The notes under the pieces are model-generated. The model did not search any database and was not told the origin of the DNA. It saw only the letters and a program-made list of their open reading frames with translations. From positions 72,689 to 136,688 of the forward strand of contig JASHPK010000017.1 in NCBI GenBank assembly GCA_030038095.1: 64,000 nucleotides of DNA, given 5' to 3'. The position numbers and the translations under genes were made by a program. This document shows, piece by piece, positions 14,393 through 21,429 of the stretch. The DNA comes from Thermoplasmata archaeon (GTDB lineage Archaea; Thermoplasmatota; Thermoplasmata; Lutacidiplasmatales; UBA184). Position 1 is the first letter of the stretch. Each line of letters opens with the position of its first letter.

Positions 14393-14983
14393 ATGACCGA
14401 GCGGGGGACCTACGTCGTCATCGAGGGAATCGACGGAACCGGAAAGACGGAGCTCGCCGCGCGCCTCGTGCCTCCGCTGCTCGCCCGCGGCCATTCGATC
14501 TCGAGCTTCCGAGAGCCGACGGACAAGTTCCTGCGCTCGGAGTTCGCCCGCCTCCGAAAGATCGACCTGTTCGCGGCAGCCCTCTGCTACACCGTTGATC
14601 GGGCGATGCTCCGGCCGGGAATCGAGCACGCGCTCGACATGGGGGACATCGTCCTTCAGGATCGGTCGTTCTACTCGACGCTCGCCTACCAGTACCCGGG
14701 GCTCAGTCCCGAGGCCTGGCGCGAGGTGGAACGCATCGTGCGGGAGCTCGCGATTGAACCCGACCTCGTCCTGTACCTCGACGCCCCGGTCGAGGTCGCG
14801 ATCCACCGGGTCGAGGCCAGCGGCCAGCGGAACGCGTTCGAGGACGAGCCGTACCTCGAGCGGGTCCGGCACAAGTTCGAACAGATGTTCCAGCCCCCGA
14901 AGTGGGTCCGCCTGAACGCCAGCGGCGGGCCGGATCGGACGCTCGAGCAGGCGATGAACGCCCTCCTTGCGATCGGCCTGTAA
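14393..14983 (+). CDS. tmk: dTMP kinase
   Basis: YVVIEGIDGTGKTELAARL P-loop, FREPTD, DRSFYSTLAYQ, YLDAPVEVAIHR. Confidence 0.9.
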   Translation: MTERGTYVVIEGIDGTGKTELAARLVPPLLARGHSISSFREPTDKFLRSEFARLRKIDLFAAALCYTVDRAMLRPGIEHALDMGDIVLQDRSFYSTLAYQYPGLSPEAWREVERIVRELAIEPDLVLYLDAPVEVAIHRVEASGQRNAFEDEPYLERVRHKFEQMFQPPKWVRLNASGGPDRTLEQAMNALLAIGL

Positions 14984-15116
14984 CGGTCCCCGTCGCGGCT
15001 CCGGCTCCCCGACTCTCGCGGCACGGGGCGGTCCGCCGGCCGACGCGGGTTCGCCCGCTGCATCTGGCCCGATAGATTCATCCCCCGGAACCTTCGGACT
15101 CGTCAGCGACTCCTTC

Positions 15117-16247
15117 ATGGAAGAGCTGATGCTTCCCGGGTCGCCCTCGATCCCCACCCACCGCGCGCACTGGGCGGAGGCTGCCCACCGCCTCGGGCTC
15201 CCGGCGGCCGGGGGCGCCGCCGTAGGCGTCGGGGCGGCCCTCGCGGCGGGAGTTCGCGGTCCGCTCGGGAATCTTGCCGCCGCCGCGCTGATGGCGGCGG
15301 GAGCGGCGGCGCTCGGCGCCTCGGCGGTCGCGCACTGGGCGAAGAGGCGATCCGAGCCGGAGTCCGGGGGGGTCCTTCCCGGCGGCTCGGGAGCTCGGAC
15401 TCCGGCCGACGGAGCTCTCGAGGGCATTCGAACCGCCGCGCGCGAGTTTGACCCGTTCCCGCCCGCTCCAGAGCTATACTTCGCCTCCCAGCACGGCGCG
15501 GCGGGACCGATCTTCTCCGTCTCGACCTCGCCCGGAGATCAACTCTGGAGCAGCTGGAAGAGGGCCGACGCGGACCATCTCCTCGCGCCCCTCGTCGGGC
15601 CGGTCCCCGAGACCGTGTTCCTCTCGCCGAAGCCTGACGAGACCGATCCGTTCGCGGACCGTGCCCCCGCCTTCTCCGTCGATCCCGAGCTTCGGCTGAG
15701 GGCCCGCCCCCCTTCCGGGCCGTTGCCCGGACCCGGACCATATCCGGAAGAGGTGCTCGATCGGTGGTTCCCTCCCGGGGACTCGGCCCGGCCCCCGGCG
15801 TCCGTCGTCGAGGCCATCCCGGACGATCCGCGGTCCGAGCTCGTCGAGGATCCGTACTCCGTCTTCGGCGCCCCCCCCGAACCCGGCTCCTCCTACTTCG
15901 AGGTCCATTTCGAGGCGGTCAACCCTACCCCGCCCCATCTGCGGGCGCCGTCCGGCGGCCGCACCGGTACGCGTTCTCTTCCGGCCGGACGCCCTCGTCC
16001 CCGCACCGCGTCGTTCGGCGCATCGGTCTGTACCTCCTGCGGTCGCGAGGTACCGGACCTTCGAAGCTGGGGACCCTGTCCCGAATGCTTGCGGCCGGTC
16101 TGCAGTCACTGCCTGCTCCAGGCGCTCTGGACGCACGGACAGGGGATCTGCTCCGACTGCGCCGCCGCTCGTCCGGGGGAGGTGGGGTTCGCCCTCGACG
16201 GCGCCTCGATCGAGCGGCTCGCGCTCCCGACGGCGAGCCCGGACTGA
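15117..16247 (+). CDS. Hypothetical protein: N-terminal hydrophobic region, long disordered linker, C-terminal double zinc finger
   Basis: Gly/Ala-rich hydrophobic segments near the N-terminus; C-term CTSCGREVPDLRSWGPCPECLRPVCSHCLLQALWTHGQGICSDC. Confidence 0.5.
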   Translation: MEELMLPGSPSIPTHRAHWAEAAHRLGLPAAGGAAVGVGAALAAGVRGPLGNLAAAALMAAGAAALGASAVAHWAKRRSEPESGGVLPGGSGARTPADGALEGIRTAAREFDPFPPAPELYFASQHGAAGPIFSVSTSPGDQLWSSWKRADADHLLAPLVGPVPETVFLSPKPDETDPFADRAPAFSVDPELRLRARPPSGPLPGPGPYPEEVLDRWFPPGDSARPPASVVEAIPDDPRSELVEDPYSVFGAPPEPGSSYFEVHFEAVNPTPPHLRAPSGGRTGTRSLPAGRPRPRTASFGASVCTSCGREVPDLRSWGPCPECLRPVCSHCLLQALWTHGQGICSDCAAARPGEVGFALDGASIERLALPTASPD

Positions 16248-16840: not shown

Positions 16841-16950
16841 GCTTCGACCCCCCCGCCGGCCTCCGAGCCGAGCGTTCGCCGACCGACGCTCGGGGCTCGC
16901 GGCGGGCGCAGGAATATATGAGCGAAGCCAGTGAGGGGGTCGGCGAACCG

Positions 16951-17385
16951 ATGGTCGATTCTTCGCGCAAGGCCGACGCGCTCGCGGCCCTCGAGACGGT
17001 ACCCCTGTTCTCTAGCCTGACGAAGCGGCAGTTGAACTCGATCGCGTCCACCGCGGCCGAGCGGACCTACAAGGCGGGCGAGACGATCGTGAAGCAGGGC
17101 GACAAGGGGATCGGCTTCTACCTGCTCCTCGACGGCAACGCCGACGTCCTCAAATCCGGCCAGAAAGTCGGCGCGGTCCATCAGGGCCAGTTCTTCGGCG
17201 AGATGGCGCTGCTCGAGGAGCAGCCGCGGACCGCCGAGGTGCGAGCCTCGGCCCTGTGCCACTGTCTCGTCCTCAGCCGATGGGAGTTCTGGGGCGCGGT
17301 CGGCAAGGACCCCGAGGTGCTCCGGGCGCTCCTCACGGAGACGGTCCGCCGTCTGCGCGCTCCGGGGCCGGGTCTGAGCGAATGA
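16951..17385 (+). CDS. Single-domain cyclic nucleotide-binding (CNB/cNMP) protein
   Basis: PLFSSLTKRQLNSIA...FGEMALLEEQPRTAEVRA phosphate-binding-cassette pattern; start at 16951 favoured by aatata about 33 nt upstream. Confidence 0.85.
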   Translation: MVDSSRKADALAALETVPLFSSLTKRQLNSIASTAAERTYKAGETIVKQGDKGIGFYLLLDGNADVLKSGQKVGAVHQGQFFGEMALLEEQPRTAEVRASALCHCLVLSRWEFWGAVGKDPEVLRALLTETVRRLRAPGPGLSE

Positions 17386-18130
17386 CTCCGACGGGCGGGC
17401 CCGCCTCCTTTTGGCGGACCGAGAATCGCAGCTCGAAGGCCTCCTGACCTCCCGGGTACTCCTTCGTCGCCACGTTCGTCCGTTGGATGAGGATGCCTCG
17501 CTCCTCGAGGCGGGAGCGCTGCCGGTCGAGCGCTTCGCCGAAGAGGATGTTTGCGACCAGGCGGTTCGCCGCTGCGCGCTCGACCATCCGGCTCGCCCCG
17601 ACGATCGGGGCGCCGATCAGCGTGAGCGAGTCCCCGACCCGAGCGAGCTCGCACGGTCCGCTGTCCGCCCCTAGGGAGAGCCCGACGCCGGTCGGGAAGT
17701 TCCGGGAATTGCCCCGAAGGTTCGCGACGAGCGCCTCGGACGCCGGCAGGACCGCCTGGCAGAACTCGGGGATCCGGACGACCTCCCTCGGCTGGCCCGG
17801 CTCGTGGATCCAGAAGGAGATGAACCCGTCCCCCGTGAACTTGTCGAACCAACCCTCGTTCTCGTGCGTCAGGCTGCGGACCGCCTCCGTGAACCCGATG
17901 ATGAACTTCGCGAACAGCGAAGGCTTGAGCGCCTCCTTGAGCACGAACCCTGAGAGCCGGAGGTCCCCCACGATCACGGTCGCATCGACCTCGGTCGAGC
18001 CCCGGTCGAGGAGGGTGGCGATCGCCGCGTCTCCGAGCTGCGCGCGGCCCTCGGGGGGAGCGTGCCGGCGCAGGAGGCGGTCGAGCTCCCCGCCCGCCGG
18101 GACCCCGCCGCCGGTATCCCCCGCGTCCAA
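17333..18130 (-). CDS. Adenylate/guanylate cyclase (class III) homology-domain protein
   Basis: IVGDLRLSGF...FDKFTGDGFISFW (two metal Asp and adenine-type Lys positions)...GVGLSLGAD...SLTLIGAPIVGASRM. Confidence 0.75.
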   Translation of the reverse strand: MDAGDTGGGVPAGGELDRLLRRHAPPEGRAQLGDAAIATLLDRGSTEVDATVIVGDLRLSGFVLKEALKPSLFAKFIIGFTEAVRSLTHENEGWFDKFTGDGFISFWIHEPGQPREVVRIPEFCQAVLPASEALVANLRGNSRNFPTGVGLSLGADSGPCELARVGDSLTLIGAPIVGASRMVERAAANRLVANILFGEALDRQRSRLEERGILIQRTNVATKEYPGGQEAFELRFSVRQKEAGPPVGVIRSDPAPERADGGPSP

Positions 18131-18946: not shown

Positions 18947-19504
18947 ATGTCCACGGAGCACGGTCGCTCGCCCGACTCGGTCGAGCTCATCGACCTCGAA
19001 GGGGCCGCTCGAGAGCGCGCCGTTCCCATCCTCATCGACTCGTTCGTTGGAATCTACCGATGGCACGCGAAGCGGACGCTGCGCCGGGTCTCCACCGTCC
19101 GGGGCGCCGAGGTCGCAGGCGAGCTCGCGGCCGTCGCCATGCTCGAGCGGCTCGTCGAGGGAGTGGGCTACGTCTACTACATCGCGGTCGCGAGCGCCCA
19201 CCGCCGCGAGCGCCTCGGCCAGCGTCTCCTGGACGACGCGCTCGCGCGATTCCAGCGGGACCGGATCCGGATCGTCTACGCGGCGGCCGAGGAGGACAAC
19301 GAGCCGTCGATCGCCCTGTTCCGGTCCCGGGGATTCCGCATCGTGGAGCGGGACGAGCGGAGCTACCTCGAAGGCGGCCTCGGAGCGAAGGGGCTCCGCA
19401 CCCGGATGATGCTCGTCTCGGGGGAGGTGCTGCTGGGCCGGTTCCTGACCGATCCCTCCTCCGTCGCGCCCCGGCAGGATCCCGATCTCTCAGAAAACAG
19501 ATAA
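18947..19504 (+). CDS. GNAT family N-acetyltransferase
   Basis: YYIAVASAHRRERLGQRLLDDALARF (acetyl-CoA loop RxxxxGxxL) ...VYAAAEEDNEPSIALFRSRGFRIVERD. Confidence 0.85.
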   Translation: MSTEHGRSPDSVELIDLEGAARERAVPILIDSFVGIYRWHAKRTLRRVSTVRGAEVAGELAAVAMLERLVEGVGYVYYIAVASAHRRERLGQRLLDDALARFQRDRIRIVYAAAEEDNEPSIALFRSRGFRIVERDERSYLEGGLGAKGLRTRMMLVSGEVLLGRFLTDPSSVAPRQDPDLSENR

Positions 19505-19536
19505 GTCGGGTTCCGCGTCGAGTACCGGGGACGCGC

Positions 19537-21429
19537 GTGATCGAGCTCGCTCGGGCCCCAGCCATCGCCGTCGTCGTTTCGGCGATCGTACTCGGATCGG
19601 CCCTCGTCCCGATCCCCATGTCCGGAGTCGCCCCGCGCTCCGAGGGGTCCGTCCGGTTCTCGACCCTCGGCTCGAACGTCCCGACCGGTCGAGCCGGTAG
19701 CCCCTCCGCGGTGGGGAATCGGGCGAAGGGAACGCCGATGGTCGCCGGACTCCGGGGGGCCGGTATCGCGTCGGAAGTGGTCGACGACCGATCCGCCGCT
19801 CCGGCTCCCTCGGATTCGAACTACGTTCCGGTCACATTCCTGCAGACGGGCCTCGTGCTGGGCACGCGGTGGGACGTGGTCGTGACGGACGTCGGGACGG
19901 TGTACAGCAACGGCACCTCCGCGACCCTCTCGCTCGTCCCCGGGGAGTACGACTGGAGCCCCGGGAGCGTCCAGGGATACGGTTCGAGCGGGGGCGGGAA
20001 TTTCTCGGTGGTGGCCGCCGCGCTCTGGATCACGGTGCGCTACCATGGGAGCCTCTTCACCACGTACCCCGTGACGTTCCGGGCGCCCGAGATGCCGCCC
20101 GGGGTTCCCTGGTACGTCAACTTGAGGAGCGGACCCTCCGCCTCCTCGACGAACTCGACCCTGACGTTCTACGAGACCAACGGATCCTTCGGCTGGTCGA
20201 TCGGGCCCACGGTCCATCTCACGGCGACCCCGGACAGCGGGGTCCTCTTGGTGAACGGAACTCCGCTCACTGAGACCATCGACTGGCTCCTCGCCTCCGG
20301 ATACTACGAGGTCCTCTTCAACGAAACCGGCCTACCGGGGGGGTTCAACTGGTCCGTCACGCTCAACGGGACCACGACGACGACGTTCGCGTCCCCGATC
20401 GGATTCATCGTGCCGAACGGGTCGTATCCCTTCACGGACGAAAGTCCGTCCGGCTTCGAGGCGCATCCCGCGAACGGGACCGCGACGGTCACGGGTGAGG
20501 ATACGGAGTTCCTGATCGTCTTTGGCCCCGAGATCGTCCCCACGTACTCGATCTTCTTCGTGGGGGAGTTCCTGCCTCCGCACGGCACCTGGTCGGTCAC
20601 CCTCGCCGGGTTGACCCTCATCGCGAACGGCCCGAACGTCGGGATGCAGTTCATCGTGCCGAACGGCTCCTACCCCTACCGGGTCCGGCCCCCGTTCGGC
20701 TACATGTCCACCCCGACCAACGGGACCGTGACCGTGAACGGCTCGAACGCGCCGACCGTCGTCCTGACCTTCGCCCTCGCTCCCGTTCCGGAGTACGAGG
20801 TCACGTTCCTCGAGACCGGGCTGCCGAACGGTACCTTCTGGGACGTGATCTGGGCCGGGGCAACCTACTACGAATCCGAGAACCGCACGATCGACTTCGG
20901 CGCGAGCAACGGGACCTACGTCTGGGTGGTCAGCTCGGAGTCTCCCGACATGCCTTCGCCGCCGAGCGGAGAGCTGAACGTCTCGGGCCCGATCGCGGGC
21001 CCGCTCTCGATCCGCTTCGTCGCCCCCCCGCTCCGATTCCCGGTCCACTTCGTGGAGACCGGCCTGCCGAACGGCACGCTCTGGTCGGTCACGATCACCC
21101 CCGGGGCGAGCTACACCTCCCTCAACGCGACGATCGAGTTCACCGAGCCGAACGGGACCTTCCTGTTCCGCGTCAGCAACGTCTCAGGTCTCAATTCGAC
21201 CCCGTGGCAGGGGACGTTCTCCGTGGCCGGCGGACCCCTCGAGATCCCCGTCCGCTGGAGTCCGGTCTCGACCTCGTTCCTCGGGTCCGCGAACTTCTGG
21301 CTCCTGGTGACGCTCGCCTCCGCGACCGCGATCGCCGCGGTCGTCCTCGTCTGGCAGTACCGTCGCCCCCGCCTGCCGTTCTCTCGCCGGGACGCGCGTC
21401 GCCTCCTCCAGAAGGAATTCCGCCACTGA
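19537..21429 (+). CDS. Secreted/surface repeat protein with C-terminal TM anchor
   Basis: GTG start with hydrophobic N-terminus; six V.F.ETGLP.GT.W.V-type units; many N-x-S/T; C-terminal LLVTLASATAIAAVVLVW then basic tail. Confidence 0.75.
   Translation: MIELARAPAIAVVVSAIVLGSALVPIPMSGVAPRSEGSVRFSTLGSNVPTGRAGSPSAVGNRAKGTPMVAGLRGAGIASEVVDDRSAAPAPSDSNYVPVTFLQTGLVLGTRWDVVVTDVGTVYSNGTSATLSLVPGEYDWSPGSVQGYGSSGGGNFSVVAAALWITVRYHGSLFTTYPVTFRAPEMPPGVPWYVNLRSGPSASSTNSTLTFYETNGSFGWSIGPTVHLTATPDSGVLLVNGTPLTETIDWLLASGYYEVLFNETGLPGGFNWSVTLNGTTTTTFASPIGFIVPNGSYPFTDESPSGFEAHPANGTATVTGEDTEFLIVFGPEIVPTYSIFFVGEFLPPHGTWSVTLAGLTLIANGPNVGMQFIVPNGSYPYRVRPPFGYMSTPTNGTVTVNGSNAPTVVLTFALAPVPEYEVTFLETGLPNGTFWDVIWAGATYYESENRTIDFGASNGTYVWVVSSESPDMPSPPSGELNVSGPIAGPLSIRFVAPPLRFPVHFVETGLPNGTLWSVTITPGASYTSLNATIEFTEPNGTFLFRVSNVSGLNSTPWQGTFSVAGGPLEIPVRWSPVSTSFLGSANFWLLVTLASATAIAAVVLVWQYRRPRLPFSRRDARRLLQKEFRH
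19825..21270 (+). repeat. Six-unit protein-coding tandem repeat, period about 240 nt (80 aa)
   Basis: Equivalent codons at 19828, 20068, 20308, 20548, 20797, 21040 (spacing 240, 240, 240, 249, 243). Confidence 0.75.

What the first reader, a model, noticed from the sequence alone, without database searches (positions are those of the whole stretch)
16951..18130. Convergent class III cyclase-like gene and cyclic-nucleotide-binding protein: candidate archaeal cNMP signalling pair
Seen: a stand-alone CNB domain (FGEMALLEEQPRTAEVRA close to the cAMP phosphate-binding consensus) lies tail-to-tail with a single-domain class III cyclase homology protein, with 53 bp of 3' overlap (17333-17385). The cyclase domain keeps both metal Asp positions (GDLRLSGF, TGDGFISFW) and a Lys in the adenine-specifying position (DKFTGDG). 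By eye the transition-state Asn position (usually VN..AAR) reads as Val, while the Arg is retained (IVGASRM). The CNB protein has no fused output domain, so any output would come from protein-protein interaction. Inference: a minimal writer/reader pair with possible 3' antisense cross-regulation.
Basis: partly seen in the sequence, partly recalled or inferred. Interest (0 to 1): 0.62.

Follow-up and report, generated by a model that had tools for sequence, protein, structure and literature searches.

The report
Archaeal cyclic-nucleotide writer and reader pair
In an uncultured soil archaeon, a small protein that should bind cyclic nucleotides sits tail-to-tail with an unusual, conserved relative of the enzymes that make them, and the wider group of archaea carries many more such readers next to ordinary cyclase genes, so cyclic-AMP-type signalling in archaea, hardly studied so far, becomes testable here.

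Summary
Window 16918-17385(+) is a genuine stand-alone CNB domain (PF00027, 7e-19). Window 17333-18130(-) is a genuine single-domain class III cyclase homologue, but so divergent that Pfam Guanylate_cyc misses it. It was identified by 19 aligned family members, an AlphaFold model (pLDDT 82) whose top PDB matches are class III cyclases (CyaB 3e-11), and a profile hit to CyaB (4e-4). Across the family both metal Asp, the ATP-type Thr and the transition-state Arg are invariant; the Lys is kept in 18 of 19. The host belongs with Ca. Lutacidiplasmatales. The convergent pair recurs in 5 of 21 genomes, on four deep branches of the cyclase tree, with almost no other shared neighbours; the 3' overlap is not conserved (53, 11, 11 bp, gaps of 91 and 160 bp), so antisense regulation has no support. 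The CNB family is also enriched beside canonical PF00211 cyclases (18 of 77 within 3 kb; about 1.9 expected). Best reading: a local writer/reader pair inside a larger cNMP network. Whether the Asn-less protein still cyclises is unknown. Pycsar membership fails. New variant of a known kind.

The parts
16918..17385 (+). Stand-alone cyclic-nucleotide-binding (CNB) protein, 155 aa (144 aa if started at ATG 16951); no fused output domain
   Evidence: PF00027 E=7.2e-19; PDB best hits are CNB domains of PKG/PKA regulatory chains; 77 relatives in the order
17194..17247 (+). Phosphate-binding cassette FGEMALLEEQPRTAEVRA (E95 ribose contact, R104 phosphate contact, T105)
   Evidence: sequence; aligned with PKG cassettes; G, E and R roles as described for CNB domains in PMC11224242
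17333..18130 (-). Divergent single-domain class III nucleotide cyclase homologue, 265 aa from TTG; conserved core about residues 16-236
   Evidence: 19-member alignment A1; AF2 pLDDT 82.4; Foldseek CyaB 3r5g 3.4e-11, CyaC, Cya2, Rv1625c; profile vs CyaB 3.7e-4; no Pfam match
17963..17965 (-). D56, first metal-binding Asp
   Evidence: invariant in A1
17828..17842 (-). K97 (adenine-specifying Lys position) to D101 (second metal-binding Asp), motif KFTGD
   Evidence: D101 invariant, K97 in 18 of 19 (Arg in G054)
17621..17623 (-). T170, second substrate-specifying position; Thr as in CyaC and CyaB
   Evidence: invariant in A1; aligned to Thr of CyaB and CyaC
17600..17602 (-). V177, position of the transition-state Asn
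   Evidence: Val in 18 of 19, Ile in G058; aligned with Asn of CyaB
17588..17590 (-). R181, transition-state Arg
   Evidence: invariant in A1
17333..17385 (.). 53-bp convergent 3' overlap of the two genes
   Evidence: not conserved in relatives (11, 11, -91, -160 bp)

Best explanation
The two genes are a local writer/reader pair inside a wider cyclic-mononucleotide network of Ca. Lutacidiplasmatales-type archaea. SHOWN: the minus-strand protein is a conserved divergent class III cyclase homologue with its metal, ATP-type base (Lys/Thr) and Arg residues kept and the Asn replaced by Val/Ile throughout the family. SHOWN: the plus-strand protein is a stand-alone CNB domain with the ribose-contacting Glu and phosphate-contacting Arg. 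SHOWN: the pair is conserved on several deep branches of the cyclase tree, and the CNB family is linked to class III cyclase genes generally. INFERRED: the cyclase homologue dimerises, binds ATP and two metals, and makes a 3',5'-cNMP (cAMP most likely) slowly or on activation. INFERRED: the CNB protein binds that product, probably also cAMP from the canonical cyclases, and passes the signal on by binding a partner protein, since it has no output domain of its own.
For: Fold: Foldseek top hits all class III cyclases; secondary structure places D56 at the end of strand 45-56, D101 in the 94-98/102-109 hairpin, and V177 and R181 on helix 174-184. Residues. Adjacency: convergent pair in G000, G052, G054, G057 and G058, on four of the deep lineages of the A1 tree, while nearly all other neighbours differ. 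Co-occurrence: 20 of 21 A1 genomes carry the CNB family versus 36 of 85 others. CNB family next to canonical cyclases: 18 of 77 within 3 kb against about 1.9 expected, and 55 of 56 CNB genomes have PF00211 genes versus 12 of 50 without; same-strand CNB-then-cyclase arrangements with short spacing in G011, G072, G095 and G035. Bacterial parallel: the Rhizobium relative (24% id, Val at the same position) lies directly upstream of a fused CNB-cyclase gene. Natural class III cyclases without the Asn, such as Rv1900c, are known (PMC4886424).
Against: The Asn is lost in every member, so normal cyclase activity is uncertain. 16 of 21 A1 genes have no CNB beside them, and G039 has A1 with no CNB match at all. 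In G057 the cyclase copy is decayed (D56 to Tyr, second Asp lost, frameshift) beside an intact CNB. The genes are convergent, so not co-transcribed. No output partner was found. Genome co-occurrence is not corrected for phylogeny.
Confidence: 0.5

Rival explanations
1. Pseudo-cyclase: the A1 protein binds nucleotide and metal but no longer cyclises. It regulates (by heterodimerising with a canonical cyclase, by binding the CNB protein, or as an NTP sensor), and the CNB protein reads cAMP made by the genome's canonical cyclases.
For: Asn to Val/Ile in all 19 members; all 21 A1 genomes also carry canonical cyclases, and those read next to CNB genes have K and D at the base-specifying positions, i.e. 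ATP type; CNB relatives sit beside canonical cyclases without A1.
Against: Both metal Asp, Thr170 and Arg181 are invariant and Lys is nearly so, which is more than an inert scaffold would need; natural active cyclases lacking the Asn exist (PMC4886424).
Confidence: 0.3
2. Pycsar-like antiviral system: the A1 protein makes cUMP or cCMP on infection and the CNB protein triggers an abortive response.
For: All 19 members hit PADLOC PycC models (best 1.8e-8) and the CNB hits PycTIR (2.7e-17); pair of cyclase plus CNB.
Against: No TIR or transmembrane effector domain. Canonical cyclases of the same genome match the same PycC model as well or better (5e-10), so the hit is not specific. No viral or phage relatives. 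Confined to one family of archaea at one copy per genome.
Confidence: 0.07
3. The adjacency is accidental: two unrelated signalling genes that happen to converge.
For: 16 of 21 A1 genes are not beside a CNB; other neighbours vary; overlap length not conserved.
Against: With about 1-2 CNB genes per 1.8 Mb genome, convergent contact within 200 bp in 5 of 21 genomes on four deep branches is far above chance.
Confidence: 0.1

Closest known systems
Class III adenylyl cyclases CyaB (P. aeruginosa), CyaC (Spirulina), Cya2
   Same: Fold; both metal Asp; Lys and Thr at the base-specifying positions as in CyaC/CyaB; transition-state Arg
   Different: About 18% identity; Asn replaced by Val; no fused sensor or transmembrane domain; not recognised by PF00211
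DUF2652 (PF10851) nucleotide-cyclase-like proteins of bacteria (PMC4886424)
   Same: Reported there as class III-like, Arg kept, a hydrophobic residue (Ile) in place of the Asn, some members near cNMP-binding genes
   Different: No A1 member matches the DUF2652 model and none was found in 41 genomes of the order (though that search rang in no control)
Pycsar (PycC plus PycTIR/PycTM)
   Same: Two-gene module of a divergent class III cyclase and a CNB protein
   Different: Here the CNB has no effector domain, the genes converge, and the PycC similarity is no greater than that of ordinary cyclases
Rhizobium leguminosarum pRLN3 WP_105009760 / WP_105009759
   Same: Closest non-archaeal full-length relative found (24% over 91%); Val at the Asn position; next gene is a CNB-cyclase fusion
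   Different: Co-directional, overlapping genes; partner carries its own canonical cyclase domain

Membership tests
Class III nucleotide cyclase superfamily | Cyclase-homology fold | tested here: met
   AF2 model; Foldseek 3r5g 3.4e-11, target-normalised TM 0.77
Class III nucleotide cyclase superfamily | Two metal-binding Asp | tested here: met
   D56 and D101 invariant in A1
Class III nucleotide cyclase superfamily | Transition-state Arg and Asn (usual, but absent in some active members such as Rv1900c) | tested here: not met
   Arg invariant, Asn absent (Val/Ile). Member by fold and descent; catalytic membership left open
Class III nucleotide cyclase superfamily | Makes a cyclic nucleotide | not testable with these tools
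   needs an enzyme assay
Pfam Guanylate_cyc PF00211 | Score over the gathering cut-off | tested here: not met
   no hit in any of 19 members
CNB domain (PF00027) | Score over cut-off and intact phosphate-binding cassette | tested here: met
   68 bits vs 27.5; FGEMALLEEQPRTA
CNB domain (PF00027) | Binds a cyclic nucleotide | not testable with these tools
   needs ITC or similar
Pycsar | CNB fused to TIR or transmembrane effector | tested here: not met
   155-aa protein, only PF00027
Pycsar | Specific PycC relationship | tested here: not met
   canonical cyclases of the same genome match the PycC models equally
DUF2652 (PF10851) | Match to the family model | tested here: not met
   not among hits at E up to 10

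The most novel reading that the evidence does not exclude
The A1 family is an unrecognised archaeal branch of the class III cyclases in which the catalytic Asn was replaced once and kept as Val/Ile. It works as a tuned-down or product-altered cyclase (or nucleotide-sensing pseudo-cyclase) coupled to a stand-alone CNB reader, within an archaeal cAMP network that signals only through protein-protein contact.
Probability: 0.3. Interest if true: 0.62.

Novelty: new variant of a known kind. Interest (0 to 1): 0.42.

Why it matters
Cyclic mononucleotides have been measured in archaea but their makers and readers are mostly unknown, and very few archaeal class III cyclases are recorded (PMC8646023). 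Here a whole archaeal group has up to 21 such genes per genome, a genetically linked family of readers, and a conserved Asn-less cyclase branch that domain databases miss. That gives a small set of proteins on which archaeal cNMP signalling, and the need for the transition-state Asn, can be tested directly.

Tried and rejected
Antisense cross-regulation by the 3' overlap: rejected, as overlap varies from 53 bp to a 160-bp gap. Pycsar: rejected. Viral or phage origin: no relatives in viral contigs or phages. A PD-(D/E)XK-like neighbour (my reading of its motif; no significant Pfam match) beside the pair in G052/G058 and beside A1 in G060/G074 looked like an effector, but it is a single-copy gene of 61 of 106 genomes and absent from the window's genome. 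A clade of CNBs specific to A1: not supported, as linked CNBs fall in one subfamily but are not monophyletic. The PADLOC PDLC00734 'fusion' first looked like specific Rosetta-stone evidence, but the profile matches ordinary cyclases and CNBs widely. The Actinobacteria cyclase survey PMC2447327 gave no text on the Asn. Tal et al. 2021 (Pycsar) is not in the library.

Full report
1. The observation. The window lies in a 1.84-Mb, 67-contig archaeal genome with G+C near 70% in the window. Homologous loci are titled Thermoplasmata MAGs. The CNB gene runs from 16918 (or 16951) to 17385 on +, and the cyclase-like gene from 18130 to 17333 on -. They overlap by exactly 53 bp at their 3' ends. Comparison with relatives shows substitutions concentrated at third codon positions for both genes, so neither is an antisense shadow.

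2. The reader protein. P0001 matches PF00027 with 68 bits against a cut-off of 27.5. In the PDB its best matches are the CNB domains of cGMP-dependent protein kinases and PKA regulatory subunits. The cassette FGEMALLEEQPRTAEVRA keeps the Glu and Arg that hold ribose and phosphate. Nothing else is fused to it.

3. The writer-like protein. P0002 has no match in Pfam or NCBIfam. The window copy plus 18 homologues (53-70% identity to it) gave alignment A1. The A1 profile reaches CyaB of P. aeruginosa at 3.7e-4. AlphaFold2 gives pLDDT 82 and pTM 0.79, and the PDB structures listed as best matches are class III cyclases. Asp56, Asp101, Thr170 and Arg181 are invariant, Lys97 is Arg once, and the position of the transition-state Asn is Val in 18 and Ile in 1. 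PMC4886424 points out that cyclases without this Asn, such as Rv1900c, are known, and describes DUF2652 proteins with Ile at that place; A1 does not match DUF2652.

4. Distribution and context. A1 occurs in 21 of 106 genomes of the order, in two genera of one family (a twenty-second hit in G093 at 9e-4 with five stops is discounted), and almost nowhere else in a sample of 390 genomes of the phylum. No relatives were found in viral contigs or phages. The convergent CNB neighbour recurs in G000, G052, G054, G057 and G058. On the A1 tree these sit on four deep branches: G057 with G023; G052 with G058; G000 with G036/G039; G054 with G060/G061/G074. A single ancient link with later losses is the simplest reading. 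The 3' geometry is 53, 11 and 11 bp of overlap and gaps of 91 and 160 bp, and the overlapping cyclase tail is unconserved and has pLDDT below 50, so the overlap has no visible function. In G057 the cyclase copy is decayed while the CNB is intact.

5. The wider network. I collected 77 CNB homologues with flanks. Eighteen have a canonical class III cyclase domain within 3 kb; about 1.9 would be expected from the number of such genes per genome. Some of the eighteen are related loci, so independent events are fewer, perhaps a dozen (my estimate). In G011, G072, G095 and G035 the CNB gene is followed by a canonical cyclase on the same strand, with roughly 50-230 bp between. At the genome level, 55 of 56 CNB genomes have PF00211 genes against 12 of 50 others; this is not corrected for shared ancestry. 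Up to 21 PF00211 matches occur per genome. Those next to CNBs that continue into a TolB-like region resemble rhizobial-type cyclases (my reading of the sequences, not a database result).

6. A bacterial parallel. The best full-length relative found outside archaea is WP_105009760 on a Rhizobium plasmid (24% over 91%, E 5e-5). It too has Val at the Asn position and overlaps by 4 bp with a CNB-cyclase fusion gene. The similarity is weak, and its place in the tree is on a very long branch, so it is suggestive only.

7. Judgement. The pair is real and very unlikely to be accidental, the fold and residues are established, and a writer/reader relation is the best reading (0.5). The main uncertainty is catalysis: a pseudo-cyclase that leaves synthesis to the canonical enzymes is the chief rival (0.3). 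A Pycsar system is unlikely (0.07): the CNB lacks an effector domain, and the PycC matches are no better than those of ordinary cyclases of the same genome.

Noticed in passing
L001-L008 (window's own genome, contigs C13, C23, C30, C36, C48, C64, C67): Eight canonical class III cyclase genes (PF00211) in one 1.84-Mb archaeal genome; up to 21 in relatives (G093), though few archaeal class III cyclases are on record.
   Followed up: partly
L041:7022-7696, L045:9237-9953, L044:3893-4726, L047:1630-2454: Conserved protein of unknown family with a D...EMK motif reminiscent of PD-(D/E)XK nucleases, beside the CNB or the cyclase-like gene in four genomes; single-copy in 61 of 106 genomes, absent from the window's genome.
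   Followed up: partly
L056:7777-8441: In G057 the cyclase-like gene is frameshifted and has lost both metal Asp positions while the convergent CNB gene is intact: a natural pseudogene or an assembly error.
   Followed up: no
L156:4887-6784: Rhizobium leguminosarum pRLN3: Asn-less cyclase homologue overlapping by 4 bp a CNB-cyclase fusion gene, just upstream of a His-Xaa-Ser radical SAM cluster.
   Followed up: partly
L157:3896-4378: Persicobacter plasmid homologue of the cyclase-like gene cut off in mid-domain next to an ORF that looks like a transposase.
   Followed up: no
window 19300-21429: Long Ser/Thr/Gly-rich, probably secreted repeat protein (repeats of the type 'F.ETGLPNGT.W.V' and a C-terminal hydrophobic segment), a surface-protein type also found near several related loci.
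   Followed up: no
window 14967-16247: ORF with a hydrophobic segment and a C-terminal Cys-rich RING/zinc-ribbon-like motif (weak PF25080, E 0.12), upstream of a flavodoxin gene.
   Followed up: no
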